A stretch of 64,000 bases of DNA. It comes from Actinoallomurus soli (GTDB lineage Bacteria > Actinomycetota > Actinomycetes > Streptosporangiales > Streptosporangiaceae). The position numbers were made by a program, and so were the translations under genes. This document shows, piece after piece, positions 9 to 63,810 of this stretch (the stretch's first letter is position 1; each line of letters begins with the position of its first letter). The stretch spans positions 36,907 through 100,906 of the forward strand of contig NZ_JAMXMV010000024.1 in NCBI RefSeq assembly GCF_024055715.1, read 5' to 3'. The notes beneath the pieces were generated by a model, which saw nothing but the letters and a program-made list of their open reading frames with translations, had not been told where the DNA came from and made no database searches.

Positions 9-1052
9 GTGCGACGCAATGTCGGATTGGTCCTGGTCGGAGTCGCGGCCTTCTTCCTCGCCCTCGCCACGCTCGTGCGGTTCTACGTCGCGAACCAGGT
101 GATCGCCGCCCCGGCGAACTTCTTCCAGCAGTCGACGCTGGAGGCCACCGGCGCCTCGTACCTCGACACCGCCACCCTCAAGATGCGCGACGGCGTGCGC
201 CTGCGGGCGGTGAACACCGTCCGCGGCGACGCGCGCGCCGCCACCAACAAGATCGCCGTGTGGGACTCCTTCACCTCCATCGAGGACCCCGCGACGAAGA
301 AGAGCGTCGAGATCCAGCAGCAGCGCGCCGCCTTCGACCGCCGGACCGGGACGCTCTACAACATCAAGGGCGCGTCGGTGGGCAGCGACACCGGCGTCCG
401 GCAGTCCGGGATCGGGACGTTCTGGCCGATCGGCGTGAAGAAGCGCTCCTACCCGTACTTCGACATCTCGACGAAGCGGACCTGGCCCGCGGTCTTCGCG
501 GGGGAGGAACGGCTCCAGGGCATCACGACGTACCGCTTCGTGCAACGGATCCCCCCGACGGTCACCGAGTCCGTCAAGGGCGGCCTGCCCGCGTCGCTGC
601 TGAAGGTGAAGAACCCCAAGAAGCTCCCGGGCTATGACAAGAAGACCGGGAACGTCGCCGTCGACCGCGTCTACGACGCGACCGTGACGCTCTGGGTGGA
701 TCCGCGCACCGGCGGCCAGGTGAACCAGGAGCAGAAGGTCCGGACCACGCTCCGCACCAAGGACGGCGTGGACCGGCTCGTCGCCGCGAACCTGGACCTG
801 AGGATGACCGACGCGAGCCAGAAGGCCCTCGCCAAGATCAACAAGGACCAGGCGCTGAAGATCACGGCGTTCCGGGCGATCGTCCCGATCGGCGGCGCGG
901 CCCTCGGGCTGGTCCTGCTCGTCGTCGGGCTCGTGCTGGCGATCCCCGGACGCGAGACGATCATTCCGCTGCCCGACGGCGCCGACGAGAGCGCGAGCAC
1001 GACGAAGGCGGACGGCCCGAGCCAGGCCGTCCGCCCTCGGTCCGGAAACTGA
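9..1052 (+). CDS. DUF3068 (PorA-like) membrane protein
   Basis: Protein of 347 aa from a GTG start only eight bases into the window, so an upstream start cannot be excluded. Residues 5-27 form an N-terminal membrane segment, followed by a long soluble domain, a second membrane segment at about 290-313 and a short polar C-terminal tail. This two-TM layout and the opening pattern (VRFYV, then PANFFQQSTLEATGAS) are typical of the actinobacterial DUF3068 family, sometimes named porin PorA family. The biochemical role is unknown; the large domain would lie outside the membrane. The gene converges on the M1 peptidase gene with a 4-bp gap, so the two share a 3' boundary but no operon. Confidence 0.85.
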   Translation: MRRNVGLVLVGVAAFFLALATLVRFYVANQVIAAPANFFQQSTLEATGASYLDTATLKMRDGVRLRAVNTVRGDARAATNKIAVWDSFTSIEDPATKKSVEIQQQRAAFDRRTGTLYNIKGASVGSDTGVRQSGIGTFWPIGVKKRSYPYFDISTKRTWPAVFAGEERLQGITTYRFVQRIPPTVTESVKGGLPASLLKVKNPKKLPGYDKKTGNVAVDRVYDATVTLWVDPRTGGQVNQEQKVRTTLRTKDGVDRLVAANLDLRMTDASQKALAKINKDQALKITAFRAIVPIGGAALGLVLLVVGLVLAIPGRETIIPLPDGADESASTTKADGPSQAVRPRSGN

Positions 1053-35864: not shown

Positions 35865-36965
35865 TCAGGGGAGCCGTACGACGTCGGTCCGCTCGGTGAA
35901 CTCGTGCAGGATGTCCGGGAGCGGCGCCACGCCGAGTCCGGGGCCGGACGGCACGCTCATCAGGCCGTCCGCCAGCCGGAACGGCTCGGTGAGGTCGCGG
36001 GTGTAGTACCGGTCGGACGCGGAGACGTCGCCCGGCAGCGTGCAGCCGGGCAGGGCCGCGAACGCGAGGTTGGCGGCCCGGCCCAGCCCGGTCTCCAGCA
36101 TCCCGCCGCACCAGACCGGAACGCCGTGCGCCGCGCACAGGTCGTGGATCCGCCGGGCCTCCAGGTACCCGCCGACGCGGCCGGCCTTCACGTTGACGAT
36201 CGAGCACGCGCCCAGGGTGATGGCGTCGGCGGCGGCCCGCGCCGAGACGATCGACTCGTCCAGGCAGATCGGGGTGGTCAGCGCGCGGGCGAGCCGGGCG
36301 TGGCCGAGCAGGTCGTCCTCGGGCAGCGGCTGCTCGATCAGCAGCAGGCCGAAGGGGTCCAGCGCCGCGAGGTGCCGCAGGTCCGCCCGGCGGTACGCGG
36401 CGTTGGCGTCCACCTGCAGAAGGATGTCGCCGAACCGCTCCCGTACCGCGCGCACCGGTTCCAGGTCCCAGCCCGGCTCGATCTTCAGCTTGATCCGCGC
36501 GTACCCCTGCTGGAGGTAGGCGGCCACGGCGTCGAGCAGTTCGGGGATCGAGTCCATGATCCCGACGGACACCCCGGCCGGTACTCGCGTCCGCGTCGCG
36601 CCCAGGTACGCCGCGTACGACATCCCTGACAGGCGCAGCTCGGCGTCCAGCACCGCCATCTCGACGGCGGCCTTCGCCATCGGGTGACCCCGCACGGGTT
36701 CGAACACCGCGCCGAGTCCGCGGGCGGTGACGTCCGCGGGCAGCCGGGGGAGCAGGAAGTCACGGATCACCTGCTCGTCGCCGTTCACGTACTCGGCGGA
36801 GTAGAGAGGGCCCGCGGCGGCGACGCACTCGCCCCAGCCCTCGACCTCGTCGCCGAAGACCCGGACGAGCAGGACCTCCCGGTCGACCTCCGTGCCGAAG
36901 GACGTGCGGAACGGCGTGACCAGGGGCATGCGGATCCGCCGCAACTCCACTCCGGCGAGCTTCAT
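35865..36965 (-). CDS. N-succinylamino acid racemase / o-succinylbenzoate synthase-type enolase
   Basis: Protein of 366 aa from ATG 36965. Enolase superfamily, MenC/NSAR branch: KxK with Lys159 and Lys161 (RIKLKIEPG), metal ligands Asp186 (QVDANAAY), Glu211 (IEQPL) and Asp236 (CLDES), and Lys260 (NVKAGRVGG). Length equals NSAR of Amycolatopsis. The start overlaps the GNAT gene stop (ATGA), so both are translated together. In a characterised Geobacillus operon, NSAR with a GNAT N-succinyltransferase and a desuccinylase turns D- into L-amino acids. No other menaquinone gene is nearby, which favours NSAR over MenC. Confidence 0.85.
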   Translation of the reverse strand: MKLAGVELRRIRMPLVTPFRTSFGTEVDREVLLVRVFGDEVEGWGECVAAAGPLYSAEYVNGDEQVIRDFLLPRLPADVTARGLGAVFEPVRGHPMAKAAVEMAVLDAELRLSGMSYAAYLGATRTRVPAGVSVGIMDSIPELLDAVAAYLQQGYARIKLKIEPGWDLEPVRAVRERFGDILLQVDANAAYRRADLRHLAALDPFGLLLIEQPLPEDDLLGHARLARALTTPICLDESIVSARAAADAITLGACSIVNVKAGRVGGYLEARRIHDLCAAHGVPVWCGGMLETGLGRAANLAFAALPGCTLPGDVSASDRYYTRDLTEPFRLADGLMSVPSGPGLGVAPLPDILHEFTERTDVVRLP

Positions 36966-37729
36966 CTCGGGCGCTCCAGGAGGTAATAACCGGCGCGGGT
37001 GAAACCGCTCACACGGTACCCCTCGGCGAGCGCGCCGCCGAGCGCCGCCCGCTGCGCCCGGCGCCACTCGCGGGCCGCGTCCGGGTCGCCCGCGCGCAGG
37101 GCGGTCACGTCGGCCGGCGTGCCGACCGCCAGGGTCGCGGCGCCCGCCGCGCCGCGCGTCTCCGGACGGTCGGCCGCGTCCGCGCGCAGCACGATCGGGG
37201 TGTCCGCGCCGGGCTCCGGCCGCGTCGCGGGCCGGCCCGCGATGGCCGCCGCGACCTCCGGGCTCCCGATCGGCCAGGTGAGGAGGAGACGGTCGCTCGG
37301 GTCGCCCATGTTCAGCTCGTCGGGCATGTCACCGTAGAAGTCCTCGAGGTACGCGGTGGCGCGCGCCGCCAGCTTGACCAGGTTGAAGTACGCGTTGCGC
37401 CGGGTCAGCGGGTCGAAGGTCCAGCCGATCGTCGTGATGCCCCGGGCCAGCGCCCATTCGCGCTGGTGCACCTTGATCGCGTACCCGACGCCCCGGCCCG
37501 GCACGGCGACGCCCGTGATGTGGGAGTGCAGGCCGCCGTCCGCGGTCGGGAAGGCCGCGCAGGCCCCGATCATCGTGTTCCCGTCGAACGCCCCGGCGAC
37601 GTACCCACCGATGTGCCGCGTCACCTGGAGCATCTCGTACGGCATCGGGTCGGTCGGCCGCCAGACCTCGGCGAGCAGTGAGGATGCGGCGAAGAGCTCC
37701 TCCGGAGTCGTCAGCTCGCGTACGTCCAT
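36962..37729 (-). CDS. GNAT-family acyltransferase (COG3375-like), probable partner of the racemase
   Basis: Protein of 255 aa from ATG 37729 (MDVRELTTPEELFAASSLL). It has an acetyl-CoA-type GNAT core with GVAVPGRGVGYAIKVHQREW as the pyrophosphate loop and FDPLTRRNAYFNLVKLAA downstream, the signature of the COG3375 group found beside MenC/NSAR genes. In that context the likely reaction is N-succinylation of a D-amino acid with succinyl-CoA. The 3' end overlaps the racemase start by 4 bp. The ribosome site is weak. A desuccinylase was not found in the window. Confidence 0.8.
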   Translation of the reverse strand: MDVRELTTPEELFAASSLLAEVWRPTDPMPYEMLQVTRHIGGYVAGAFDGNTMIGACAAFPTADGGLHSHITGVAVPGRGVGYAIKVHQREWALARGITTIGWTFDPLTRRNAYFNLVKLAARATAYLEDFYGDMPDELNMGDPSDRLLLTWPIGSPEVAAAIAGRPATRPEPGADTPIVLRADAADRPETRGAAGAATLAVGTPADVTALRAGDPDAAREWRRAQRAALGGALAEGYRVSGFTRAGYYLLERPR

Positions 37730-51512: not shown

Positions 51513-51833
51513 CTAGGCCAGGTGCCAGACGGCGGGGAGGCCCTTGGCGGCGCCGTCGCCGGAGTAGTCGTGCACGACGTCGAGGTAGCCGGCCATGCGC
51601 GCCTGCCAGGCGACGTTGACCGGCAGATCCTCCAGGGCGGCCAGCAGGGCGGCGTAGTCGTCGCAGTCGATGACGTGGAACAGGTCGAGGCCGCTGCGCC
51701 AGATCGTCCACTCGTGCGCGCCGGCGTCCTTGATCGCCTGGACGAGGTCCGGCGGGACCTCCCGGTGCGCCCGCTCGTACTCCTCCTCGCGGCCGGGCTT
51801 GAGCCGGGTGTGCAGTGCGACGCGCAACGTCAC
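51513..51833 (-). CDS. L-rhamnose/L-fucose mutarotase (RhaM/DUF718 family)
   Basis: Protein of 106 aa from GTG 51833, which overlaps the GntR stop codon (GTGA). The RhaM dimeric ferredoxin-like fold is visible: RVALHTRLKPGREEEYERAH, IDCDDYAALLAAL and the C-terminal W-H motif (AVWHL). These enzymes interconvert anomers of 6-deoxyhexoses and so speed entry into dehydrogenase-based pathways. It lies in the minus-strand arm of the fucose divergon and is co-translated with the regulator. The family is named for L-rhamnose, but L-fucose is the substrate that fits the operon. Confidence 0.85.
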   Translation of the reverse strand: MTLRVALHTRLKPGREEEYERAHREVPPDLVQAIKDAGAHEWTIWRSGLDLFHVIDCDDYAALLAALEDLPVNVAWQARMAGYLDVVHDYSGDGAAKGLPAVWHLA

Positions 51834-52537
51834 TCCTCCTCTTCCTGCTGACGGCGGGCCCACTCCTCGACCGCGCCGATGTGGACCGCGGCGGCGACGC
51901 GGGCGCCGTCCGGGTCCCGCTCGACGAGCGCGCGGTAGATCGCGTCGTGCTCGCGGTACGTGCGCGCGAAGACGCCCTCCTCGCGGTAGCCGCGCCAGAC
52001 GCGGGCCCGGAACGTACGGCTGTTCAGCCCGCCGAGGATCGCGGAGAGCACCGGGTTTCCCGCCGCCTCGGTGATGATGCGGTGGAACTCCAGGTCGTGC
52101 CCGACGATCTCCTCGGCGTTCGCGCCCCGCTCCATCGCCGTCATCTCGGCGCGCAGGCGGGCGAGCCCTTCGTCGTCGATGCGGGCCGCCGCCGCGGCGG
52201 CGGCCGCCGGCTCGAGGATCTTCCGCACCTGGACGAGGTGCAGCAGGGTGTCGCCGCGGGAGATCTCCGCGACGACGCCGAAGGTCTCCAGGAGGTCGCC
52301 CGGCTGGAGCTGGGTGACGTAGATGCCGGCCCCGTGGCGCGCCTCCAGGACCCCCATGACGGTCAGGGCGCGGATGGCCTCGCGCATCGAGCTGCGGGAC
52401 AGCCCGAGGTCGGCGGCGAGGTCGCGTTCGGTCGGCAGGCGCTGGCCGGGCGTGAACTCACCCATGGCGATCCGGGTCTTGATCTCCTCGATCGCCCGCT
52501 GGGTGACGGTGGTCCTGGCGCCGGCGTCGTCGGTCAC
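51830..52537 (-). CDS. GntR-family (FadR/FCD subfamily) regulator of the fucose cluster
   Basis: Protein of 235 aa from GTG 52537, with GGAGG/GGGGGAG upstream. GntR winged helix at about 10-70 (GEFTPGQRLPTERDLAADLGLS) and an FCD ligand domain with metal-site residues (Asp/His in GHDLEFHRIITEAAGNP, later AAVHI). FCD proteins sense small acids. It is divergent from the catabolic operon with two TGGTnnnACCA-type sites between, one near each start, so it should repress both arms. The likely inducer is a fucose-pathway acid such as L-fuconate or 2-keto-3-deoxy-L-fuconate, by inference. Confidence 0.9.
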   Translation of the reverse strand: MTDDAGARTTVTQRAIEEIKTRIAMGEFTPGQRLPTERDLAADLGLSRSSMREAIRALTVMGVLEARHGAGIYVTQLQPGDLLETFGVVAEISRGDTLLHLVQVRKILEPAAAAAAAARIDDEGLARLRAEMTAMERGANAEEIVGHDLEFHRIITEAAGNPVLSAILGGLNSRTFRARVWRGYREEGVFARTYREHDAIYRALVERDPDGARVAAAVHIGAVEEWARRQQEEEE

Positions 52538-52584
52538 GCGCTCCCCCTCCTCCGACTGTGGGTCACATCCTGCCGGACGGAGAG

Positions 52585-52595
52585 TGGTCGTACCA
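52585..52595. promoter_or_regulatory. GntR operator O1 (TGGT-CGT-ACCA)
   Basis: Perfect 11-bp inverted repeat followed by ATT, the consensus of FadR-subfamily proteins such as PdhR and LldR (TGGTnnnACCA). It lies 48 bases before the GntR start. Confidence 0.75.
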
Positions 52596-52690
52596 ATTTT
52601 CAGTAAGTAACAACTATGTAACGGGGTATTGCCAGGAGATTGCCCCTTAATGGTCTTATGTCCGCACAAGAGGTCCGATGAGTGCAGGAG

Positions 52691-52701
52691 AGGTCGGACC
52701 A
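52691..52701. promoter_or_regulatory. GntR operator O2 (AGGT-CGG-ACCA)
   Basis: One mismatch to TGGTnnnACCA, 27 bases before the first catabolic gene and 106 bp from O1. A related half site, AGGTCCGATGA (52671-52681), lies just upstream. Spacing allows looping between the two sites. Confidence 0.65.
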
Positions 52702-52727
52702 ACCGTACGAGCAGGGAGTGCGACCAC

Positions 52728-53567
52728 GTGAAGCTGCTGCGTGTCGGACCGGAAGGCGCCGAACGCCCCGCGGTCCTGGCAGAGGACGGCTCGCTCCTCG
52801 ATCTGTCCGGCCTGACCCGCGAGATCGACGGCGACTTCCTCGCCGCGGATCTGGAGCGGGCCGGGGCGGCGTACGCGGCAGGCGAGCTGCCGCCCATCCA
52901 GAAGACCGAGCGGATCGGCGCACCGCTGGCCCGGCCCGGCAAGGTCGTGTGCATCGGCCTGAACTACCGCGACCACGCGGCGGAGACCGGCGCGGACATC
53001 CCGGCCGAGCCGATCATCTTCATGAAGGCGTCGAACACGGTCATCGGCCCGGACGACGACGTGCTCATCCCCCGGGGCAGCGAGAAGACCGACTACGAGG
53101 TGGAACTGGCCGTCGTCATGGGCGGCCGCGCCCGCTACCTGGACTCGCCGGCGGACGCCCGCCCGCTCATCGCCGGGTACGCGATCAGCAACGACGTCTC
53201 GGAGCGGGAGTTCCAGCTGGAGCGCGGCGGCCAGTGGGACAAGGGCAAGTCCTGCGAGACCTTCAACCCCCTGGGGCCGCACCTCGTGACCGCCGACGAG
53301 ATCGACGATCCGCAGGACCTCGGGCTGCGCCTCTGGGTCAACGGGGAGCTCCGCCAGGACGGCACCACCAAGGACATGATCTTCCCGGTCGACCACCTGA
53401 TCTGGTACCTCAGCCAGTTCATGGTCCTGGACCCCGGGGACGTCATCAACACCGGAACCCCGGCCGGCGTGGCGCTGGGCGGTCCGGGCATCCCCTTCCT
53501 GCGCCGCGGGGACGTCATGGAGCTGGAGATCGACGGGCTCGGCCGGCAGCGGCAGAGGCTCGCATGA
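52728..53567 (+). CDS. FAH-family hydrolase, probable 2,4-diketo-3-deoxy-L-fuconate hydrolase
   Basis: Protein of 279 aa from GTG 52728, AGGGAG nine bases upstream. Fumarylacetoacetate-hydrolase fold: [10 protein letters not shown], metal ligands Glu124 and Glu126 in [20 protein letters not shown], and the C-terminal [11 protein letters not shown]. In the non-phosphorylating L-fucose pathway, the final step cleaves 2,4-diketo-3-deoxy-L-fuconate to pyruvate and L-lactate by such an enzyme. First gene of the long operon, overlapping the dehydratase gene by ATGA. Ureidoglycolate lyase-type function is a less likely alternative. Confidence 0.88.
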
Positions 53568-54847
53568 AGGTCATCGCCCTCGAGGCCCACGACATCCGGT
53601 TCCCGACCTCCCGGCAGCTCGACGGCTCGGACGCGATGAACCCGGACCCGGACTACTCCGCGGCCTACGTCGTGCTGCGCACGGACGAGGGCGGCGAGGG
53701 CCACGGGTTCACGTTCACGATCGGACGCGGTACGGAGGTGTGCGTCGCGGCGATCGAGGCGTACGCGCCGCTGGTCGTCGGACTCGACCTCGACCTGTCC
53801 GACCTGGGCGGATTCGCGCGGCGGCTGCTCCACGACTCCCAGCTGCGCTGGCTCGGCCCGGAGAAGGGCGCGGTCCACATGGCCGCCGCCGCGATCATCA
53901 ACGCCGCGTTCGACCTCGCCGGGCGCGTCGCCGGCAAGCCGGTCTGGCGGCTGCTGGCGGACCTGCCGCCCGAGCAGATCGTCGACCTGGCCGACTGGAG
54001 GTACCTCACCGACGCCCTCCGCCCCGAGGAGGCCGTCGACCTGCTGGCGGCGGCCCGCGCGGGCCGGGAGGAACGGGAGGCCGCCCTGCTGGCCACCGGC
54101 TACCCCGCGTACACGACGACGCCCGGCTGGCTCGGGTACACCGACGACAAGCTCGTGGCCCTCGCCCGGGAGGCCGTCGCGGACGGCTTCACCCAGATCA
54201 AGCTGAAGGTCGGCGGCGACCTGGCCGACGACGTGCGCCGCATGGAGCTGGCCCGCCAGGCGGTCGGGCCGGACATCCGCGTCGCGATCGACGCCAACCA
54301 GCGGTGGGACGTCGGTCAGGCGATCGAGTGGGTCGGGGCGCTCAAGCGGTACGACCCGTGGTGGATCGAGGAGCCGACCAGCCCCGACGACATCCTGGGC
54401 CACGCGGCCGTGCGCCGGGCCGTCCGGCCCGTGCGGGTGGCGACCGGCGAGCACGTCGCGAACCGCGTCATCTTCAAGCAGCTGCTGCAGGCCGAGGCGA
54501 TCGACGTGCTGCAGATCGACGCCTGCCGCGTCGCCGGGGTGCCGGAGAACGTCGCGATCCTCCTGCTCGCCGCCAAGTACGGAGTCCCGGTGTGCCCGCA
54601 CGCCGGCGGCGTCGGGCTGTGCGAGGTCGTGCAGCACCTGTCGATGTTCGACTACCTCGCCGTCAGCGGGAGCACCGAGGACCGCGTCATCGAGTACGTC
54701 GACCACCTGCACGAGCACTTCACCGACCCGGTGCGCATCCGGGACGGCCACTACCTCGCGCCGACGGCCCCGGGAATGTCGGCGCAGATCAGGCCCGAGA
54801 GCCTGCGCGAGTACGCCTACCCCGACGGTGCCGCCTGGAGGTCCTGA
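53564..54847 (+). CDS. L-fuconate dehydratase
   Basis: Protein of 427 aa, the normal FucD length. Enolase superfamily, mandelate racemase group: Lys213-x-Lys215 (QIKLKVGG), metal ligands Asp243 and Asn245 (AIDANQRW), Glu269 ([10 protein letters not shown]) and Glu296 (TGEH), catalytic His346 in [15 protein letters not shown], a motif characteristic of FucD. It removes water from L-fuconate to give 2-keto-3-deoxy-L-fuconate. Overlaps the FAH gene by 4 bp and is 1 bp from the SDR gene. L-rhamnonate or galactonate dehydratase are alternatives, but the His motif favours FucD. Confidence 0.92.
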
Positions 54848-54848
54848 C

Positions 54849-55592
54849 GTGGAATTCGACGGCATCAAGGCGATCGTCACCGGAGGGGCCTCCGGCATCG
54901 GCCTCGCCACCGCCCGGCTGCTCACCGAGCGCGGTGCGACCGTGACCTGTCTCGACCTGGCCGAACCGCCCGCGCCCCTGCACGGGGTACGGGCCGACGT
55001 ACGGGACGACGCGTCCGTCCGCGCGGCGGTCGCGGCGGCGGCCGGCCACCTCGGCGGCCTGGACGTGCTGGTCAACAACGCCGGGATCGGCGCGCAGGGC
55101 ACGGTCGAGGACAACGACGACGACGAGTGGCGCGACGTCTTCGACGTGAACGTGTTCGGCATGGTGCGCGTGACCCGCGCGGCGCTGCCGTACCTGCGCC
55201 GATCCGAGCACGCCGCGATCGTCAACACCTGCTCGATCGCGGCCACCGCCGGGCTGCCGCAGCGGGCGCTGTACTCGGCGACCAAGGGCGCCGTGCAGTC
55301 GCTCACCCTGGCGATGGCGGCGGATCACCTGCGCGACGGTATCCGGGTGACCTGCGTGAACCCGGGCACCGCCGACACCCCCTGGATCGGCCGGCTGCTC
55401 GCCGCGACCGGCGATCCGGAGGCGGAGCGGGCCGCCCTTGCGGCCCGGCAGCCGAGCGGCCGGCTGGTCAGCCCGGAGGAGGTCGCCGCGGCGATCGCCT
55501 ACCTGGCCGGCCCGCTGGCGTCGGCGACGACAGGAACGGCGCTGGCGGTCGACGGGGGCATGGCCGGCCTGCGACTTCGCCCAGAGAGATGA
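54849..55592 (+). CDS. SDR, probable 2-keto-3-deoxy-L-fuconate dehydrogenase
   Basis: Protein of 247 aa from GTG 54849. Classical SDR: TGGASGIG (11-18), NNAGIGAQG, catalytic Ser in NTCSIAA and Tyr/Lys in YSATKGA, then PGTADTPWIGRLL, seen in many KDF dehydrogenases. The reaction fits the gap in the pathway: NAD-dependent oxidation of 2-keto-3-deoxy-L-fuconate to the 2,4-diketo acid. It is 1 bp after the FucD stop codon and 7 bp before the transporter gene. L-fucose dehydrogenase activity is an alternative, but an AKR downstream fills that step. Confidence 0.85.
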   Translation: MEFDGIKAIVTGGASGIGLATARLLTERGATVTCLDLAEPPAPLHGVRADVRDDASVRAAVAAAAGHLGGLDVLVNNAGIGAQGTVEDNDDDEWRDVFDVNVFGMVRVTRAALPYLRRSEHAAIVNTCSIAATAGLPQRALYSATKGAVQSLTLAMAADHLRDGIRVTCVNPGTADTPWIGRLLAATGDPEAERAALAARQPSGRLVSPEEVAAAIAYLAGPLASATTGTALAVDGGMAGLRLRPER

Positions 55593-55599
55593 GGACGCG

Positions 55600-56649
55600 A
55601 TGAAGCGAGGAATGCTGGCGGCGGGTGCCGTCATCGCGGCGGCCGCCTGCCTGACGGCCGGGTGTAAGAGCAGCAGCGGCGGCGGCTCGGCCGGCGGCGG
55701 CGCCGTCGGGGTGGACTACCCCCGGTCCGACACCGACTTCTGGAACTCCTACATCAAGTACGTCCCGCAGTACGGCAAGCAGGACGGCCTGGACCTGAAG
55801 ACCACCAACTCCGAGAACGACATCGCCAAGCTCGCCGCCAACGTCCAGTCGCTCATGGGCCAGGGCGTGAAGGGCATGGTCCTGGCGCCGCAGGACACCG
55901 CCGCGGTGGCGCCGACGCTGAACCAGCTGAAGCAGAAGAAGATCCCGGTGGTCACCGTCGACACCCGCCCGGACAAGGGCGACGTCTACATGGTGGTCCG
56001 CGCCGACAACCGCGCGTACGGCGAGAAGGCCTGCAGGTTCCTCGGCGACACGCTGAAGGGCAAGGGCAAGGTCGCGATGCTGGAGGGCGATCTGGCCTCC
56101 ATCAACGGCCGGGACCGCACCGAGGCGTTCGACCAGTGCATGTCCCAGAACTACCCGGGCATCAAGGTCATCGGCCTGCCCACCGAGTGGAAGGGCGACG
56201 TCGGCGCGAACAAGCTGCAGACCACGCTCGCCGCGAACCCGGACCTGAACGGGATCTACATGCAGGCCGGCGGCGCGTTCCTCGCCCCGACGCTCAACGT
56301 GCTGAAGCAGAAGGGCCTGATCTTCCCGCCGGGGAACCCGAAGCACATCACGATCATCTCCAACGACGGCATCCCGGAGGAGTTGAAGGCGATCGGGGCC
56401 GGGCAGATCGACGCGACCGTCTCCCAGCCCGCCGACCTGTACGCGAAGTACGCGCTGTACTACGTGAAGGCCGCCCTCGACGGCAAGAAGTTCGCCCCGG
56501 GCAAGACCGACCACGACTCGACGATCGTCGCGCCGCGGCCCGGCCTGCTCGAGGACCAGCTGCCCGCGCCGCTGGTCACCAAGGACGGCACCTACGCGGG
56601 CTCGCTGAAGGCGACGGACCCCCAGCTCTGGGGCAATCAAGTCAAATGA
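55600..56649 (+). CDS. Sugar ABC transporter substrate-binding lipoprotein
   Basis: Protein of 349 aa from ATG 55600. Signal peptide ends in LTAGC (lipid-modified Cys22) followed by a Ser/Gly linker. A periplasmic-binding type 1 domain (RbsB-like) follows: YPRSDTDFWNSYIKYVPQYG, then GMVLAPQDTAAVAPTLNQLK, VVTVDTRPDKGD, MLEGDLASINGRDRTEAF and ISNDGIPEELKAIGAG. It should bind the transported monosaccharide (L-fucose by context) outside the membrane. The ATGA overlap with the ATPase gene indicates coupled translation. Confidence 0.92.
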   Translation: MKRGMLAAGAVIAAAACLTAGCKSSSGGGSAGGGAVGVDYPRSDTDFWNSYIKYVPQYGKQDGLDLKTTNSENDIAKLAANVQSLMGQGVKGMVLAPQDTAAVAPTLNQLKQKKIPVVTVDTRPDKGDVYMVVRADNRAYGEKACRFLGDTLKGKGKVAMLEGDLASINGRDRTEAFDQCMSQNYPGIKVIGLPTEWKGDVGANKLQTTLAANPDLNGIYMQAGGAFLAPTLNVLKQKGLIFPPGNPKHITIISNDGIPEELKAIGAGQIDATVSQPADLYAKYALYYVKAALDGKKFAPGKTDHDSTIVAPRPGLLEDQLPAPLVTKDGTYAGSLKATDPQLWGNQVK

Positions 56650-58163
56650 GCCATTCCGCCAGCGCCGCGGCCGGCGTACGGCCGGTCGCGGCGGCGCACA
56701 GGATCAGCAAGCGGTTCGGCGTGACCGTCGCGCTCGACGACGTGTCGCTCGCCGTGGACGACGGCGACATCCACGCCCTCGTCGGCCGCAACGGCGCCGG
56801 GAAGTCGACCCTCGTGTCGATCCTCACCGGCCTCGTCCCCCCGGACTCCGGAACGGTGGAGTTCGGCGGCGAGCCCGCCCCGCCGCTCGCGGACCGCGAG
56901 GCGTGGCGGCAGCGGGTCGCCTGCGTCTACCAGAAGCTCACCGTCATCCCCTCCCTGTCCGTGGCCGAGAATCTGTTCCTGAACAGGCAGGGCCGTGGCC
57001 TGATCTCCTGGGGCTCGCTGCGCCGCCGCGCCCGCGAGCTGCTGGACGCCTGGGAGGTCGACGTCGACGTGCGGGCGCCCGCCGAGCGCCTCACCGTCGA
57101 GCAGCGGCAGCTGGTGGAGATCGCGCGGGCGCTGTCGCACGGCTCGCGGTTCATCATCCTCGACGAGCCGACCGCCCAGCTCGACGGCCAGGCGATCGAG
57201 CGGCTGTTCGCCCGCATGCGCTCCCTGCGGGAGTCGGGGGTGACGTTCCTGTTCATCAGCCACCATCTCGACGAGGTGTACGAGGTCTGCGACACCGTCA
57301 CCGTGATGCGCGACGCCCGGCACATCGTGACCTCCCCGGTCGCGGAGCTGGGCAAGGAGGCGCTGGTCACCGCGATGACCGGCGAGGCCACCGGGCTGAT
57401 CGCCCTCGGCGCCGCCCGATCCGCGCCGGCGGGCGGCGCCGCGCCCGTGCTGACCGTCACCGGACTCGGCGTCCCGGGCGTCTTCGAGGACGTCTCGCTG
57501 ACCGTCGCGCCCGGCGAGATCGTCGGGCTGGCCGGCGCCGGCGGCTCGGGCAAGATGGCCGTCGGCGAGTCGATCGTCGGCCTGCGCCGGGCCGCCCGCG
57601 GCACCGTCGAGATCGGCGGTACGACGCCCCGGCCGGGCAGCGTGCCGGCCGCGCTGCGGGCCGGCCTCGGGTTCGTCCCGCAGGACCGGCACCGGGAGGG
57701 CCTGGTCCCCGGTCTGTCCATCGCCGAGAACACCACCCTGACCGTCCCCGAGCGGCTCGGCCGCTTCGGGTTCGTCGGGCCGCGGCGGCGCGACGAGCTC
57801 GGCGCCAAGGCCATCGGCGACCTGGACATCAAGGCGGCCGGGCCGGACCAGCCGGTGTCCGCGCTGTCCGGCGGCAACCAGCAGAAGGTCGTCATGGCCC
57901 GCGCGCTCGCGGGGGACCCGAAGGTGCTGGTGCTCATGCAGCCCACCGCCGGGGTCGACGTCAAGGCGAAGGAGACGCTGCTCGGCACGGCCTCCGCGGC
58001 GGCCACCGGAGGCGCGGGCGTCCTGGTGATCTCCGACGACCTCGACGACCTCCGCCCCTGCGACCGGGTGATCGTCCTGTTCAAGGGCGCCGTCGTCGCC
58101 GAGATGCCGACCGGCTGGGCCGACCACGAACTGATCGCCGCGATGGAGGGCATCCGTGACTGA
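56646..58163 (+). CDS. Sugar ABC transporter ATPase (two NBDs, second degenerate)
   Basis: Protein of 505 aa, RbsA/MglA layout. NBD1: Walker A GRNGAGKST (47-55), signature LTVEQRQ (149-155, without the central Gly of LSxGxQQ), Walker B IILDEPT with Asp173 and Glu174. NBD2: altered Walker A GAGGSGKM (297-304), intact signature LSGGNQQK (407-414) and altered Walker B VLVLMQPT, with Met431 and Gln432 in place of Asp-Glu. One composite ATP site (Walker A1/B1 with signature 2) is complete and the other is degenerate. It powers uptake of the pathway sugar. Overlaps the binding-protein gene by 4 bp and the permease gene by 8 bp. Confidence 0.92.
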   Translation: MSHSASAAAGVRPVAAAHRISKRFGVTVALDDVSLAVDDGDIHALVGRNGAGKSTLVSILTGLVPPDSGTVEFGGEPAPPLADREAWRQRVACVYQKLTVIPSLSVAENLFLNRQGRGLISWGSLRRRARELLDAWEVDVDVRAPAERLTVEQRQLVEIARALSHGSRFIILDEPTAQLDGQAIERLFARMRSLRESGVTFLFISHHLDEVYEVCDTVTVMRDARHIVTSPVAELGKEALVTAMTGEATGLIALGAARSAPAGGAAPVLTVTGLGVPGVFEDVSLTVAPGEIVGLAGAGGSGKMAVGESIVGLRRAARGTVEIGGTTPRPGSVPAALRAGLGFVPQDRHREGLVPGLSIAENTTLTVPERLGRFGFVGPRRRDELGAKAIGDLDIKAAGPDQPVSALSGGNQQKVVMARALAGDPKVLVLMQPTAGVDVKAKETLLGTASAAATGGAGVLVISDDLDDLRPCDRVIVLFKGAVVAEMPTGWADHELIAAMEGIRD

Positions 58164-59169
58164 GACACAGACGGCCATGGCCGCGCCGGCCCGCGGCCGG
58201 ATCACCGCGCCACGGCTGGCGCGCCTGCGCGACCTCGCGCTGGTCCCGGCGATCATCGTGATCGCCATCGTCGGCTACTTCGTCAACCCGGTGTTCCTGC
58301 ACTGGGACAACCTGGTCAACGTCCTGCAGCAGCAGTCGGAGATCTCGCTGCTCGTCCTGGCCGAGGCGCTCATCCTCATCTGCGGGCGGATGGACCTGTC
58401 GCTGGAGTCGACGTTCGGCCTCGCGCCGGGCGTCGCCGCCTGGCTCGTGCTCGCCCCCGGCGTCACGCACGGCGTCGGCTGGCTGTCCGGCGCGTGGTCG
58501 ATCCCGGTCACGCTGGTGATCGGTGCCGTCATCGGCTGGGTCAACGGCCTGCTCATCGTGCGGTTCCGCCTGAACGGCTTCATCGTCACGCTGGGCATGC
58601 TGATCGTGCTGCGCGGCCTGCTGACCGGGATCAGCGGCGGCAAGACGTTCTTCAACCTGCCGTCCTCCATGATCTACCTGGGCAACGCCGTCTGGCTGGG
58701 CCTGCCCGCCTCGATCTGGATCTGCCTGGTCCTGTACGCCCTGGCCATCGCGGTCACCGGCTACACCCGCTGGGGCCGGGCGCTGTACGCCATCGGCGGC
58801 AACGCCGACGCGGCCCGCGCCGCCGGCATCCGCGTCGACCGGGTGCTGTGGGGCACGCTCGTGCTGGCGAGCCTCCTCGCCGCCCTCGGCGGCCTGCTGC
58901 TGACCGGGCGGCTCGCCTCCGTGGCGGCCAGCCAGGGCAACGGCGCGATCTTCACGGTGTTCGCGGCGGCGGTGATCGGCGGCGTCTCGCTCAACGGCGG
59001 CAAGGGCACGATCTTCGGCGCCTTCACCGGCATCCTGCTGCTCTACATGATCCAGAACGTGCTCACGCTCGCCGGCGTCCCGGCGCAGTGGATCGGCGCG
59101 CTGAACGGTGCGATCATCCTCATCGCGCTGATCATCAGCCGGATCACGTCGGGTCAGGCACAGGAGTAG
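58156..59169 (+). CDS. Sugar ABC transporter permease (RbsC-like)
   Basis: Protein of 337 aa from GTG 58156, inside the ATPase gene end. About 9-10 membrane helices; RbsC-type motifs: VLAEALILICGRMDLSLES, GFIVTLGMLIVLRGLLTG, YAIGGNADAARAAGI (the EAA-like coupling loop) and AAVIGGVSLNGGKGTIFG. It forms the sugar channel as a homodimer with the ATPase. Only one permease gene is present, as in ribose-type importers. Followed after 2 bp by the AKR gene. Confidence 0.92.
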   Translation: MTETQTAMAAPARGRITAPRLARLRDLALVPAIIVIAIVGYFVNPVFLHWDNLVNVLQQQSEISLLVLAEALILICGRMDLSLESTFGLAPGVAAWLVLAPGVTHGVGWLSGAWSIPVTLVIGAVIGWVNGLLIVRFRLNGFIVTLGMLIVLRGLLTGISGGKTFFNLPSSMIYLGNAVWLGLPASIWICLVLYALAIAVTGYTRWGRALYAIGGNADAARAAGIRVDRVLWGTLVLASLLAALGGLLLTGRLASVAASQGNGAIFTVFAAAVIGGVSLNGGKGTIFGAFTGILLLYMIQNVLTLAGVPAQWIGALNGAIILIALIISRITSGQAQE

Positions 59170-59171
59170 CG

Positions 59172-60188
59172 ATGGAACGCCGCAGACTCGGAAGGTCGCC
59201 CGTCGAGGTGACGACGCTGTCGTTCGGCGGCGCGGCGATCGGCGGGCTCTTCGCCCCGGTCTCCGACGCCGACGCCACGGCGGCCGTACGCCGTGCCCGC
59301 GAGCGCGGCATCGGATACTTCGACACCGCGCCGCACTACGGCGCCGGCCGGAGCGAACGCCGCCTCGGCGCCGCCCTGACCGACGCGCCCGCCGGCGCCG
59401 ACCGGAGCGGCGCACCCGCCGGTGCCTCACCGACCGGCGCGTCCGCCGTGACCGGTGCGTCCGCCGGGGCGGTCGTGACCGGCGAGTACGTCCTGTCGAC
59501 CAAGGTCGGGCGGTTGCTCGTCCCCCTCGGGCCGGGGGAGCCGCCCGAGCCGGAGGGGTTCGCCGATCCGCCGCCGTACCGGCGGGTCTGGGACTGGAGC
59601 GCCGACGGCGTCCGCCGCTCCCTGGAGGAGTCGCTGAAACGCCTCGGCGCCGACCGCGTGGACGTCGTCTACCTGCACGACCCGGACGAGCACGAGGAGG
59701 AGGTGTACACGACGGCGTACCCGGCGCTGGCCGCGCTCCGTGACGAGGGCGTGGTCGGCGCGATCGGCGCGGGGATGAACCAGACCCCCATGCTGACGCG
59801 GTTCGTCGAACGCCTCGACCTGGACGTCGTGCTGTGCGCCGGGCGGTACACCCTCCTCGACCGGTCCGCCGAGGAGGACCTGTTCCCCGCCTGCGCGCGG
59901 CGCGGCACGTCGGTCGTCGCCGGTGGCGTGTACAACTCCGGGCTGCTGGCGGGGGGCACGACGTACGACTACGCGCCGGCTCCGCCGGAGCTGCTGGAGC
60001 GCGTGGCCCGGCTGGAGCGGATCTGCGCCGAGCACGGCGTGCCGCTGCGCGCGGCGGCGCTGCGGTTCCCGCTCCGGCACCCGGCCGTGGCGAGCGTCGT
60101 CGTCGGCTGCCGCAGCGCGGCCGAGGTCGACGACAACTGCGACCTGTTCGAGCGGGACATCCCCGAGGCCCTCTGGGAGGCCCTGTGA
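59172..60188 (+). CDS. Aldo/keto reductase, probable L-fucose dehydrogenase
   Basis: Protein of 338 aa with AGGAG five bases before the ATG. AKR tetrad: Asp51 and Tyr56 (YFDTAPHYGAGRSE), Lys111 (STKVGR), and His in VVYLHDPDEH at about 167. This fits the D-threo-aldose 1-dehydrogenase/L-fucose dehydrogenase group, which oxidises the sugar at C1 to a lactone with NAD(P). A low-complexity Ala/Gly/Ser/Thr insert (about 72-100, with APAGAS, PTGASA, TGASAG units) lengthens the loop after the tetrad Tyr. Overlaps the lactonase gene by GTGA. Confidence 0.87.
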   Translation: MERRRLGRSPVEVTTLSFGGAAIGGLFAPVSDADATAAVRRARERGIGYFDTAPHYGAGRSERRLGAALTDAPAGADRSGAPAGASPTGASAVTGASAGAVVTGEYVLSTKVGRLLVPLGPGEPPEPEGFADPPPYRRVWDWSADGVRRSLEESLKRLGADRVDVVYLHDPDEHEEEVYTTAYPALAALRDEGVVGAIGAGMNQTPMLTRFVERLDLDVVLCAGRYTLLDRSAEEDLFPACARRGTSVVAGGVYNSGLLAGGTTYDYAPAPPELLERVARLERICAEHGVPLRAAALRFPLRHPAVASVVVGCRSAAEVDDNCDLFERDIPEALWEAL

Positions 60189-61069
60189 GCGAGCTGGTCG
60201 ACGCCCATCACCACCTGTGGGACACCGGCGTCCGCGACTACCCCTGGATGGACGGGCCCTGGGCCGACCCCATCCGGGGCCGCTTCGACGCGGCCCGCTA
60301 CACCGAGCTGATCCGGCCGTACGGCGTGCGGACCTCGATCGTCGTCCAGGCGCTGCAGGACGTCGCGGAGACCTACGACCTCCTGTCCGTCGCGGCCGAT
60401 CCCGTCGAGGCGGATTCCGCCGCGGCCGATCCGGTCGAGGGTGACGCGCCGGGCCCGGTCGCGGGCGTGGTCGGCTGGGTCGACCTCACCGCGCCGGACG
60501 TCGCCGACCGGATCGCCGAGGTGCGCGCGAGCCCGTCCGGCCGGCTGCTCGTCGGAATCCGGCACCTCGCCCAGGACGAGCCGGACCCCGCGTGGCTGCT
60601 GCGCCCGGACGTCCTGCGCGGCGTCGAGGCCGTCGGAGCCGCCGGCCTGGTGTACGACGTGCTGGTGCGGCCGCCGCAGGCCACCGCCGCCCTGGAGCTC
60701 GCGCGCCGGCTGCCGGAGGTGTCCTTCGTCCTCGACCACGCCGGCAAGCCCGACATCGCCGGCGGCGCGTGGGAGCCATGGGCGGGCTGGATCACCGCGC
60801 TCGCCGCGCTGCCCAACGTGACGGTCAAGCTGTCCGGCCTCGTCACCGAGGCGGCGCCGGACTGGGAACCGGTCGGCATCCTGCCGTACGCCCGCCACGT
60901 GCTGGACTCCTTCGGTGCCGACCGCGTGATGTACGGCTCCGACTGGCCGGTCTGCACGCTCGCCGCGTCGTACGGCCAGGTTTTCGACCTCGCCCGGGAG
61001 GCGGTGCCGGCCGGCGACCGGGACGCGGTGTTCGGCGGAACGGCCCGCCGCGTGTACGGACTAAGTTGA
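60185..61069 (+). CDS. Amidohydrolase_2 family lactonase, probable L-fucono-1,5-lactonase
   Basis: Protein of 294 aa from GTG 60185. Metal-dependent TIM barrel: DAHHHLWD near the N-terminus (HxH at 8 and 10), GIRHLAQDE, LDHAGKPD and YGSDWPVC near the C-terminus, as in L-fucono- and L-rhamnono-lactonases. It hydrolyses the lactone from the dehydrogenase to L-fuconate. An Asp/Glu/Ala-rich insert with near repeats (AADPVEADSA, AADPVEGDA; about 70-88) is not found in the typical enzyme. Overlap of 4 bp with the AKR gene. Confidence 0.88.
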   Translation: MSELVDAHHHLWDTGVRDYPWMDGPWADPIRGRFDAARYTELIRPYGVRTSIVVQALQDVAETYDLLSVAADPVEADSAAADPVEGDAPGPVAGVVGWVDLTAPDVADRIAEVRASPSGRLLVGIRHLAQDEPDPAWLLRPDVLRGVEAVGAAGLVYDVLVRPPQATAALELARRLPEVSFVLDHAGKPDIAGGAWEPWAGWITALAALPNVTVKLSGLVTEAAPDWEPVGILPYARHVLDSFGADRVMYGSDWPVCTLAASYGQVFDLAREAVPAGDRDAVFGGTARRVYGLS

Positions 61070-61073
61070 GGTC

Positions 61074-61772
61074 ATGCGGGTCGCACTGTTCGTCACCTGC
61101 GTGAACGACACGATCTTCCCGGGCACCGGGAGGGCGACGGTCCGGCTGCTGGAGCGGCTCGGCTGCACGGTCGACTTCCCGATGGAACAGACCTGCTGCG
61201 GGCAGATGCACTTCAACACCGGCTACCGCGACGACGCCCGAGCGCTGGCCCGCCGCTTGATCTCCGCGTTCGACGGCTACGACGCGATCGTGGTGCCGTC
61301 CGGGTCGTGCGCCGCGATGGTCCGGGAGTGGTATCCCTCGCTCGGCGTCACGCCGCCGGCCGGGGTGCACGAGCTGTCGGAGTTCCTGGTCGACGTCCTA
61401 GGAGTCACCGACGTCGGCGCGTACTTCCCGCACACGGTGACCTACCACCCGACCTGTCACTCGCTCCGGGCGCTGAAGGTCGGCTCCCGGCCGCTCGACC
61501 TGCTGTCCCAGGTGCGCGGGCTCACCCTCGTTCCGCTGGGCGGCGCGGAGGAGTGCTGCGGGTTCGGCGGCACCTTCGCGCTCAAGAATCCCGCCGTGTC
61601 GGCCGCGATGTGCGCCGACAAGGTCCGGGGCGTCCTCGACACCGGCGCCGAGGTGCTGTGCGCCGCCGACAACTCCTGCCTCATGCACATCGGCGGCTCG
61701 CTGATCCGCCAGCGCGCCGGCGTCCGCGTCCTCCACCTCGCCCAGATCCTCGCCTCGACGGAGGAGGATTGA
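61074..61772 (+). CDS. lutA: L-lactate utilisation protein LutA
   Basis: Protein of 232 aa with two CCG (DUF224) domains: QTCCGQMHFNTG (from residue 39) and EECCGFGGTF, with Cys9 (VTCVND) and HPTCHSL as partners. LutA, LutB and LutC together oxidise L-lactate to pyruvate as an iron-sulfur complex at the membrane. GAGG precedes the ATG by three bases and 4 bp separate it from the lactonase gene, so it is part of the fucose operon. This makes sense because the fucose pathway yields L-lactate. Confidence 0.93.
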   Translation: MRVALFVTCVNDTIFPGTGRATVRLLERLGCTVDFPMEQTCCGQMHFNTGYRDDARALARRLISAFDGYDAIVVPSGSCAAMVREWYPSLGVTPPAGVHELSEFLVDVLGVTDVGAYFPHTVTYHPTCHSLRALKVGSRPLDLLSQVRGLTLVPLGGAEECCGFGGTFALKNPAVSAAMCADKVRGVLDTGAEVLCAADNSCLMHIGGSLIRQRAGVRVLHLAQILASTEED

Positions 61773-61774
61773 CC

Positions 61775-63190
61775 ATGGCCACCTTCATAGGGATGCCGGC
61801 CTTCCCGGAGGCGTCGGCGCGGGCGGTCGGCGACGCGCAACTGCGCCACAACCTGCGCAAGGCAACCCACACGATCCGCGCCCGGCGCGCCGCCGTCGTC
61901 GCCGAACAGCCCGACTGGGCCGGGCTGCGCGCCGCCGGTGCGGCGATCAAGGACCGTACGCTCCGCCACCTCGACGTCTATCTCGAACGGCTGGAGTCCG
62001 CCGTCACGGCCGCCGGCGGTCACGTGCACTGGGCCGAGGACGCCGCCGAGGCCGATCGGATCGTCGTCGACCTGGTCAGGGCGACCGGCGAGACCGAGGT
62101 CGTCAAGGTCAAGTCGATGGCCACCCAGGAGATCGACCTGAACGCCGCGCTGGCCGCCGCCGGCATCCGCGCGTACGAGACCGACCTCGCGGAGCTGATC
62201 GTGCAGCTCGGTGATGACCTGCCCTCGCACATCCTCGTACCGGCGATCCACCGCAACCGCGCGGAGATCCGGGAGATCTTCAGCGGCCGGATGGCCTCCT
62301 GGGGCCGTCCCGCGCCCGAGGGCCTCACGGACGACCCGCGCGCCCTCGCCGAGGCCGCCCGGCTTCACCTGCGCGAACGCTTCCTGCGCGCCAAGGTCGG
62401 CATCTCCGGGGCGAACTTCGCGGTCGCCGAGACCGGCACCCTCGTGGTCCTGGAGTCCGAGGGCAACGGCCGGATGTGCGTGACGCTCCCCGAGACGCTG
62501 ATCTCGGTGGTCGGCATCGAGAAGATCGTGCCGACCTGGCGGGATCTCGAGGTCTTCCTGCAGCTGCTGCCCCGCTCGTCGACGGGGGAGCGGATGAACC
62601 CGTACACCTCGATGTGGACCGGCGCGACGGAGGGGCAGGAGTTCCATCTCGTCCTCGTCGACAACGGGCGCACCTCGGTGCTCGCCGACCGGGTCGGCCG
62701 CCAGGCGCTGCGCTGCATCCGCTGCTCGGCCTGCCTGAACGTCTGTCCCGTGTACGAGCGGGCGGGCGGCCACGCGTACGGCTCGGTGTACCCCGGGCCG
62801 ATCGGCGCGATCCTCACCCCGCAGCTGCGCGGCCTCACCGGGCCGCTGGAGGAGTCGCTTCCGTACGCCTCGACGCTGTGCGGCGCCTGCTACGACGTCT
62901 GCCCGGTCGCGATCAACATTCCCGAGGTGCTGCTCGACCTGCGCGCCAAGGTCGTCGCGGGAGACCATCGGGCCGAGCGTCTCGCGATGGGCGCGGCCCG
63001 CCGTGTCCTGGACCATCCGAAGTGGCTCGCCCTGGCCCAGCGCTCGGTCGGCCGGCTCCGCCGCTGGACCCCACGCCACCTGCCCGGACCGCTGTCGGCC
63101 TGGTCCGACACGCGCGAGGTGCCCGTACCGCCCCGCGAGTCGTTCCGCGACTGGTGGGCACGGCGGGCGGGCGAGGAGGGCGGCCGATGA
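61775..63190 (+). CDS. lutB: L-lactate utilisation iron-sulfur protein LutB
   Basis: Protein of 471 aa. LutB/YkgF architecture: N-terminal DUF162/LUD domain (to about 290; MATQEIDLNAAL, then GISGANFAVAETGTLVV) and a ferredoxin domain with Cys314, Cys317, Cys320 and Cys324 (CIRCSACLNVCPVY), then Cys369, Cys372 and Cys376 (CGACYDVCPVAI). It passes electrons from lactate oxidation. GGAGG eight bases before the ATG; its end overlaps the lutC start by ATGA. Confidence 0.94.
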   Translation: MATFIGMPAFPEASARAVGDAQLRHNLRKATHTIRARRAAVVAEQPDWAGLRAAGAAIKDRTLRHLDVYLERLESAVTAAGGHVHWAEDAAEADRIVVDLVRATGETEVVKVKSMATQEIDLNAALAAAGIRAYETDLAELIVQLGDDLPSHILVPAIHRNRAEIREIFSGRMASWGRPAPEGLTDDPRALAEAARLHLRERFLRAKVGISGANFAVAETGTLVVLESEGNGRMCVTLPETLISVVGIEKIVPTWRDLEVFLQLLPRSSTGERMNPYTSMWTGATEGQEFHLVLVDNGRTSVLADRVGRQALRCIRCSACLNVCPVYERAGGHAYGSVYPGPIGAILTPQLRGLTGPLEESLPYASTLCGACYDVCPVAINIPEVLLDLRAKVVAGDHRAERLAMGAARRVLDHPKWLALAQRSVGRLRRWTPRHLPGPLSAWSDTREVPVPPRESFRDWWARRAGEEGGR

Positions 63191-63810
63191 GCTCCCGGGA
63201 TCGGATCCTGGCCCGCGTCCGGGCGGCGCTCGCCGACGTTCCCCGTACGGAGACGCCGGAGGACGTCGAGGTGCCGCGCGCCTACGACCGGAGCCGCTCC
63301 GGGCCCGACGTCGTCGAGCTGCTGATCGACCGACTCGTCGACTACAGGGCGGTCGTGCGCGAGGTCACCGACGTGGTGGCGGCGGTCGCGGACGCGCTGG
63401 CCCGGCGCGGTGCCCACCGGGTGGCGGCGCCCGCGGGCGTCCCCGCCGCGTGGCTCGGCGGCGTGCAGGCGGTCCGTGACGACCCGGCCCTGTCCGCGGC
63501 CGACCTCGACGCCCTGGACGGCGTGGTGACCGGCTGCGCGGTCGCCGTCGCCGAGACCGGCACGATCGTCCTGGACTGCGCCGAGGACCAGGGCCGCCGC
63601 GCCCTCACCCTGATCCCCGACTACCACCTGTGCGTCGTCCGCCGGGACCGGATCGTCCGCACGGTCCCCGAGGCGCTGACGCGCCTCGACCCCTCCCGCC
63701 CGCAGACCTGGATCAGCGGTCCCTCGGCCACCAGCGACATCGAACTCGACCGCGTGGAGGGCGTCCACGGCCCCCGCACTCTGGAGGTCCTCATCACCCC
63801 GGCCCTGTGA
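63187..63810 (+). CDS. lutC: L-lactate utilisation protein LutC
   Basis: Protein of 207 aa with a LUD domain in the second half: GVVTGCAVAVAETGTIVLD, ALTLIPDYHLCVV and the C-terminal SATSDIELDRVEGVHGPRTL, the hallmark of LutC/YkgG. Last gene of the twelve-gene plus-strand operon; the next gene is convergent and begins to end at 63826. No clear terminator hairpin was found in the 15-bp gap. Confidence 0.94.
   Translation: MSSRDRILARVRAALADVPRTETPEDVEVPRAYDRSRSGPDVVELLIDRLVDYRAVVREVTDVVAAVADALARRGAHRVAAPAGVPAAWLGGVQAVRDDPALSAADLDALDGVVTGCAVAVAETGTIVLDCAEDQGRRALTLIPDYHLCVVRRDRIVRTVPEALTRLDPSRPQTWISGPSATSDIELDRVEGVHGPRTLEVLITPAL

What the first reader, a model, noticed from the sequence alone, without database searches (positions are those of the whole stretch)
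51513..63810. A self-contained L-fucose-to-pyruvate divergon that includes its own L-lactate oxidation genes
Direct: mutarotase and GntR genes on one strand; FAH, FucD, SDR, binding protein, ATPase, permease, AKR, amidohydrolase, lutA, lutB, lutC on the other, with overlaps or gaps of at most 8 bp. Established: the non-phosphorylating fucose pathway (dehydrogenase, lactonase, FucD, KDF dehydrogenase, FAH hydrolase) ends in pyruvate plus L-lactate, and LutABC oxidises L-lactate to pyruvate. Inference: one transcript converts fucose wholly to two pyruvates, without aldolase or kinase. Joining lutABC physically to this route seems uncommon and explains the gene order.
Basis: partly seen in the sequence, partly recalled or inferred. 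Interest (0 to 1): 0.78.

Follow-up and report, generated by a model that had tools for sequence, protein, structure and literature searches.

The report
Fucose operon with built-in lactate oxidation
In this actinomycete genome, genes predicted to break the sugar fucose down to pyruvate and lactate lie in one tight gene row with three genes predicted to oxidise that lactate to pyruvate, and a gene tree puts the lactate genes of such rows in two separate lineages, so the joining likely happened more than once.

Summary
In detail: 13 genes at window 51513-63810, two on the minus strand and eleven on the plus strand, with plus-strand gaps of at most 7 bp and overlaps of at most 8 bp. [quoted passage not shown] Function is inferred from sequence; nothing was assayed. 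Of 8 FucD-bearing genomes of the genus, 6 carry the arrangement on one contig, one is split by contig ends and one lacks lutABC. Over 142 FucD-bearing Actinomycetota genomes, LutB lies within 12 kb of FucD in 11, in six genera. A LutB tree rejects one clade for the 13 rows labelled operonic (p-AU 0.0003), and the insertion sites differ, so lutABC was probably recruited at least twice. The genome's only other detected lutABC lies in an L-rhamnose cluster. The idea has a precedent: lldEFG in actinomycete rhamnose regulons (PMC3870299, passages). What I found in no search is the fucose version, its repeated origin, and a predicted TGGTnnnACCA operator whose core also stands before most standalone lut operons examined. 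Verdict: new variant of a known kind, moderate interest.

The parts
51513..51833 (-). RhaM-type mutarotase, probably L-fucose mutarotase (FucM-like)
   Evidence: Pfam rhaM 80.3 bits; TIGR02625 only 30.3 of 99.6 bits; PDB RhaU 2qlx E 3e-7
51830..52537 (-). GntR/FCD regulator, predicted regulator of the cluster
   Evidence: Pfam GntR + FCD; NCBIfam best NanR 120 and LldR 104 bits, both under cut-off
52585..52595 (.). predicted operator O1, TGGTCGTACCA
   Evidence: only exact TGGTnnnACCA in the window; the motif stands upstream of 31 of 36 GntR genes at least 55% identical to this one, 0.11 expected
52691..52701 (.). weaker predicted operator O2, AGGTCGGACCA (one mismatch)
   Evidence: largely kept in the genus alignment
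52728..53567 (+). FAH hydrolase, predicted L-2,4-diketo-3-deoxyfuconate hydrolase (FucG)
   Evidence: 8gsr E 3e-74; NF053535 321 of 500 bits
53564..54847 (+). L-fuconate dehydratase (FucD/FucC)
   Evidence: 2hne/1yey E about 8e-190 over nearly the full length
54849..55592 (+). SDR, predicted L-2-keto-3-deoxyfuconate 4-dehydrogenase (FucF)
   Evidence: best PDB match 4dqx, which PMC11199699 places close to type-2 L-KDFDH; residues S129, Y142, K146, R139, T174, R200
55600..56649 (+). sugar ABC transporter, substrate-binding protein
   Evidence: Pfam Peripla_BP_4 174 bits
56646..58163 (+). sugar ABC transporter, double ATPase
   Evidence: Pfam ABC_tran, two stretches
58156..59169 (+). sugar ABC transporter, permease
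   Evidence: Pfam BPD_transp_2 118 bits
59172..60188 (+). aldo/keto reductase, predicted L-fucose 1-dehydrogenase (FucA)
   Evidence: Pfam Aldo_ket_red; best PDB matches are L-galactose dehydrogenases (8scc E 3e-35)
60185..61069 (+). amidohydrolase, predicted L-fucono-1,5-lactonase (FucB)
   Evidence: NF052480 186.5 of 400 bits; 4dlf E 6e-37
61074..61772 (+). LutA, cysteine-rich (CCG) subunit
   Evidence: Pfam CCG, two stretches
61775..63190 (+). LutB, iron-sulfur and LUD subunit
   Evidence: TIGR00273 429.6 of 444.8 bits; Pfam LUD, Fer4_8, LutB_C
63187..63810 (+). LutC, LUD subunit
   Evidence: Pfam LUD 75.7 bits; 2g40 E 8e-50

Best explanation
This is a divergently transcribed gene cluster predicted to import L-fucose, oxidise and split it without phosphorylation into pyruvate and L-lactate, and then oxidise the L-lactate to a second pyruvate with its own LutABC. 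Predicted steps: ABC import; mutarotase; AKR makes L-fucono-1,5-lactone; the amidohydrolase opens it to L-fuconate; FucD makes L-2-keto-3-deoxyfuconate; the SDR makes L-2,4-diketo-3-deoxyfuconate; FAH splits that into pyruvate and L-lactate; LutABC takes L-lactate to pyruvate. The GntR protein likely represses both arms from TGGTnnnACCA sites in the 190-bp intergenic region and is relieved by a fucose intermediate or by lactate. Shown: gene content, order, spacing, conservation in the genus, LutB tree, motif enrichment. Inferred: every enzymatic step, co-transcription, operator function and effector.
For: FucD is a near full-length match to solved L-fuconate dehydratases, far above its match to L-rhamnonate dehydratase (81 bits against 635). 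The SDR's nearest solved relative is 4dqx, close to type-2 L-KDFDH, and it keeps the two arginines that PMC11199699 names in 4dqx (hand count). FAH is nearest to the hydrolase of the parallel rhamnose route. The genome has two GH29 matches and no fucose isomerase. lutABC follows the lactonase by 4 bp and keeps that place in 6 of 8 FucD-bearing genomes of the genus, with a seventh split inside akr by contig ends. LutB lies within 12 kb of FucD in 11 of 142 FucD-bearing genomes, 8 of the 11 on the same strand (about 0.003 expected per pair in 8 Mb). Operonic LutB rows do not form one clade (p-AU 0.0011 for 12 rows; 0.0003 for 13). Among 80 named FucD loci, lutB occurs in 4 of 20 with a FAH gene beside fucD and 0 of 60 without (Fisher p 0.003; relatedness not corrected). 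The second lutABC of the genome lies with rhamnulokinase, RhaS and RhaI genes, where L-lactate is again an expected product. The motif TGGTnnnACCA stands before 31 of 36 related GntR genes against 0 of 44 less related ones.
Against: No assay or expression data. LutB, lactonase, FAH and mutarotase matches are under NCBIfam cut-offs. The AKR is nearest to L-galactose dehydrogenases among solved structures. One close relative (G091) has the sugar genes but no lutABC behind them, and no remnant was found (best E 0.33), so lutABC is dispensable. 131 of 142 FucD-bearing genomes have no LutB within 12 kb. The third arginine of the type-1 L-KDFDH signature is not at its place (L183, with R182 beside it). 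L154, L168, L169, L179 and L183 lack the exact motif.
Confidence: 0.8

Rival explanations
1. lutABC is the cell's general L-lactate oxidation system, parked at the end of the fucose operon; its main substrate would be lactate from outside and the link to fucose is regulatory convenience.
For: The genus LutB clade is sister to LutB of standalone GntR-lutABC operons, and the genome has no standalone lutABC (2 LutB matches in all). In G115 the fucose-linked LutB is the only match.
Against: Separate joining in another lineage and at another site of the cluster; association with FAH, the lactate-forming gene; a second lutABC in the rhamnose cluster; three FMN-dependent hydroxyacid dehydrogenases elsewhere could serve lactate (none reaches an LldD cut-off).
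Confidence: 0.13
2. The cluster serves D-arabinose or L-galactose as well as, or instead of, L-fucose; the last product would then be glycolate or L-glycerate and LutABC would act on another hydroxyacid.
For: The AKR is nearest to L-galactose dehydrogenases in the PDB; [quoted passage not shown]
Against: The lactate-specific partner lutABC fits a 6-deoxy sugar; PMC6336799 (passages) reports that the D-arabinose and L-fucose clusters of one strain were each induced only by their own sugar; FucD is the L-fuconate dehydratase type.
Confidence: 0.06
3. An L-rhamnose cluster.
For: Mutarotase of the rhaM family; FAH nearest to the rhamnose-route hydrolase.
Against: FucD type dehydratase; a separate rhamnose cluster with rhamnulokinase, RhaS and RhaI exists in the same genome.
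Confidence: 0.01

Closest known systems
Non-phosphorylating L-fucose pathway, route 3 (Herbaspirillum huttiense, Xanthomonas campestris; PMC11199699, passages and one section)
   Same: Mutarotase, 1-dehydrogenase, lactonase, FucD-type dehydratase, L-KDF dehydrogenase and FAH-type hydrolase; end products pyruvate + L-lactate.
   Different: The passages seen do not mention lutABC with the cluster (term LutABC: 0 occurrences in the main text). Here lutABC is part of the gene row.
lldD / lldEFG in RhaR regulons of certain Actinomycetales and Rhodobacterales (PMC3870299, passages)
   Same: L-lactate oxidation genes tied to a 6-deoxyhexose pathway, which the authors say probably extends it to pyruvate.
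   Different: Rhamnose, phosphorylating route, lactate by RhaEW, LacI-type RhaR. Here fucose, no kinase, lactate by FAH, GntR/FCD. The genome's second lutABC (L010) looks like an instance of the published case; RhaEW itself was not looked for.
Standalone lutABC with a divergent GntR gene (L170-L172, L174, L176, L178, L180, L181)
   Same: Closest LutB relatives (75-81% identity; sister clade); the same TGGTnnnACCA core in front (8 of 12 regions looked at).
   Different: No fucose genes found beside them; their GntR is under 40% identical to the window's.

Membership tests
Non-phosphorylating L-fucose pathway, route 3 | L-fuconate dehydratase (FucD/FucC) | tested here: met
Non-phosphorylating L-fucose pathway, route 3 | L-KDF 4-dehydrogenase with arginine signature and Ser-Tyr-Lys | tested here: inconclusive
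   S129, Y142, K146, R139, T174, R200 present; third arginine position is L183 with R182 beside it; type-2-like by relation to 4dqx. Positions counted by hand through 4dqx, not aligned to the H. huttiense protein.
Non-phosphorylating L-fucose pathway, route 3 | L-2,4-diketo-3-deoxyfuconate hydrolase (FAH family) | tested here: met
   family and nearest solved relative 8gsr; NF053535 under cut-off; substrate not tested
Non-phosphorylating L-fucose pathway, route 3 | L-fucono-1,5-lactonase (cog3618 amidohydrolase) | tested here: inconclusive
   best family NF052480, 186.5 of 400 bits; 4dlf
Non-phosphorylating L-fucose pathway, route 3 | L-fucose 1-dehydrogenase | tested here: inconclusive
   AKR family; nearest solved relatives are L-galactose dehydrogenases
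Non-phosphorylating L-fucose pathway, route 3 | no reliance on the kinase route | tested here: met
   no PF07881 fucose isomerase in the genome (0 matches); draft genome, 98% complete
Non-phosphorylating L-fucose pathway, route 3 | growth on L-fucose and turnover to pyruvate + L-lactate | not testable with these tools
   needs cells or enzymes
LutABC (LldEFG) L-lactate oxidation complex | three adjacent genes: CCG protein, LUD + 4Fe-4S protein, LUD protein | tested here: met
   LutB 15 bits under the NCBIfam cut-off
LutABC (LldEFG) L-lactate oxidation complex | oxidises L-lactate | not testable with these tools
   needs an assay or a mutant

The most novel reading that the evidence does not exclude
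In actinomycetes, lactate oxidation is a movable last module of deoxyhexose breakdown: lutABC has been drafted separately into fucose operons at least twice and into rhamnose clusters besides, until in this organism no free-standing lutABC is left. A TGGTnnnACCA operator core common to the fucose regulator and to the lactate operons let lutABC pass from one control to the other without a new operator.
Probability: 0.35. Interest if true: 0.6.

Novelty: new variant of a known kind. Interest (0 to 1): 0.42.

Why it matters
If right, one gene row takes L-fucose to two pyruvates and sends the electrons of the last step to the respiratory chain (inferred), so the cell need not lose lactate. It also gives a cheap marker: lutABC beside fucD and FAH points to a 6-deoxy sugar and to route 3. 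Repeated separate recruitment makes the selective value of closing the pathway testable by comparing relatives with and without lutABC, such as G000 and G091.

Tried and rejected
Considered and set aside: rhamnose as substrate (FucD type, separate rhamnose cluster); the cluster as a one-off (it recurs in the genus); lutABC as a recent copy of the genome's other lutABC (72% identity, different LutB clades); one single joining shown by one LutB clade (rejected). The tree cannot tell two gains from one gain with two losses; different insertion sites and relatives with the same layout but no lutABC (G025 L169, Micromonospora L019 and L024) favour gain in the genus. Also tried: FMN-dependent lactate dehydrogenases in the genome (three full-length matches, none over an LldD cut-off), so a further lactate route is not excluded. 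No structure was predicted, and no metagenome or viral collection was searched. Genomes outside Actinomycetota were not searched for the linkage. Rows dropped or placed by hand: duplicates of the same LutB place and hits under 380 query residues were dropped; the row from G049 (L162, 344 residues) was added and has a very long branch; L165 was labelled operonic though its contig carries SDR and AKR but no FucD; G176 was labelled operonic although its cluster is on two contigs; 'alone' means only that none of the 13 window genes was found beside it (L177 has a rhamnulokinase-like hit some 6 kb from lutB). Of 142 LutB-searched genomes, not all LutB rows went into the tree (54 rows). Counted as unlinked: four genomes at 15-27 kb and four at 72-96 kb on the same contig.
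Full report
Observation. The window is G000:C16:36907-100906 of a 9.4-Mb draft genome, and the contig ends 190 bp after lutC.

What the genes are. FucD is a near full-length match to solved L-fuconate dehydratases. In the alignment the enolase-superfamily metal and base residues, as I recall them, are kept. The FAH protein is nearest to the L-2,4-diketo-3-deoxyrhamnonate hydrolase 8gsr. The SDR is nearest to 4dqx, which PMC11199699 (passages and section 10) calls close to type-2 L-KDF dehydrogenase; by hand count the window's R139 and R200 match its Arg170 and Arg231. The position of the third arginine holds L183, with R182 beside it. The amidohydrolase best fits L-fucono-1,5-lactonase but is under the cut-off. 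The AKR is nearest to L-galactose dehydrogenases, so its sugar is the least certain. The mutarotase is a rhaM-family protein. LutA, LutB and LutC carry the expected domains. The genome has two GH29 matches and no fucose isomerase.

How common the linkage is. Several of the 80 are cut by contig ends, so this is a lower bound. In those four the order is fah-fucD-sdr-akr-lutABC-mutarotase-amidohydrolase, not the window's. In whole genomes, FucD was found in 103 of 200 of the family and 40 of 396 of the phylum, the window's own genome included in both. LutB was then sought in these 142 genomes (80, 62): 124 have one, and in 11 it lies within 12 kb of FucD. These are six of the genus (G000, G115, G052, G135, G166, G152) and G016, G160, G049, G002 and G074, each of a different genus; 8 of 11 are on the same strand. 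G049's LutB is only 46% identical. G176 has the cluster split inside akr between two contigs. G091, a very close relative, has the sugar genes without lutABC; as G115 has it and G000 and G091 are closer to each other over most shared flanking genes, loss in G091 is likely. G025 and two Micromonospora loci have the window's layout without lutABC.

Origin of lutABC. A 54-row LutB tree rooted on the f19 rows puts the seven genus rows in one clade (100/100) beside the standalone GntR-lutABC type, and six other fucose-operon rows in another clade (88/99). Holding all 13 together is rejected (p-AU 0.0003; 0.0011 for 12 rows). Two further fucose-near rows lie beside the rhamnose clade and one in the standalone clade. 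The rhamnose rows are one clade (99/89). Labels came from gene content. The tree counts changes and cannot by itself tell gain from loss.

The second copy. The genome's only other LutB match (E at most 1e-10), 72% identical, lies in L010 between a rhamnulokinase and a LacI gene, with ABC genes, RhaS (415.8 bits, cut-off 342.25), a small gene and RhaI (659 bits, cut-off 531.35) on the other side. So both detected lutABC sets belong to 6-deoxyhexose clusters. This matches the published case of lldEFG in actinomycete RhaR regulons (PMC3870299, passages).

Regulation. The 190-bp intergenic region holds the window's only exact TGGTnnnACCA (52585-52595; 0.45 expected in the window) and a one-mismatch copy at 52691-52701. 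The motif lies within 300 bp upstream of 7 of 9 GntR genes at 80% identity or more, 24 of 27 at 55-80%, 0 of 44 at 40-55% and 4 of 4 at 20-40% (expected 0.04, 0.07, 0.13 and 0.02 by mononucleotide shuffles). The last group lies beside lutABC; 8 of 12 lut intergenic regions looked at by hand hold the core, six of them twice. That it is an operator, and common to two regulators, is inference.

Literature. L-fuconate dehydratase with lutABC: 0 papers. lutABC with fucose: 4 papers, listing seen, one of them read in passages. lldEFG with fucose: 2 papers, both read in passages. Further searches. None of what I saw reports lutABC in a fucose cluster; papers outside this library were not seen.

Verdict. 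A real, conserved cluster with a well-supported predicted function. It is a fucose counterpart of a published rhamnose arrangement, with evidence for repeated recruitment: a new variant of a known kind.

Noticed in passing
L179:5506-10094 (G007:C6): A GntR gene of the fucose type (62%) stands before FAH (67%) and lutABC in one row, with no FucD there: the lactate-forming and lactate-burning genes paired on their own.
   Followed up: partly
L199, L200, L202 (f19 genomes): LutABC-like genes (LutB 42-44%) lie about 15-19 kb from FucD in a large island with a second enolase-type gene, SDRs, an AKR and ABC genes.
   Followed up: partly
window 9-1052 (+): PorA porin family gene (PF11271, 242 bits).
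   Followed up: no
window 35865-37067 (-): A second enolase-superfamily protein, about 28% to FucD, in a neighbourhood with MlaD/Mce, thiolase and MFS genes.
   Followed up: no
L165:91-8163 (G001:C119): SDR-AKR-lutABC row directly beside shikimate-pathway-like genes; the FucD of that genome is on another contig (the shikimate reading is by eye).
   Followed up: partly
G000:C11:1254075-1255139 and G000:C2:80332-81213: Two GH29 fucosidase matches in the genome, away from the window.
   Followed up: no
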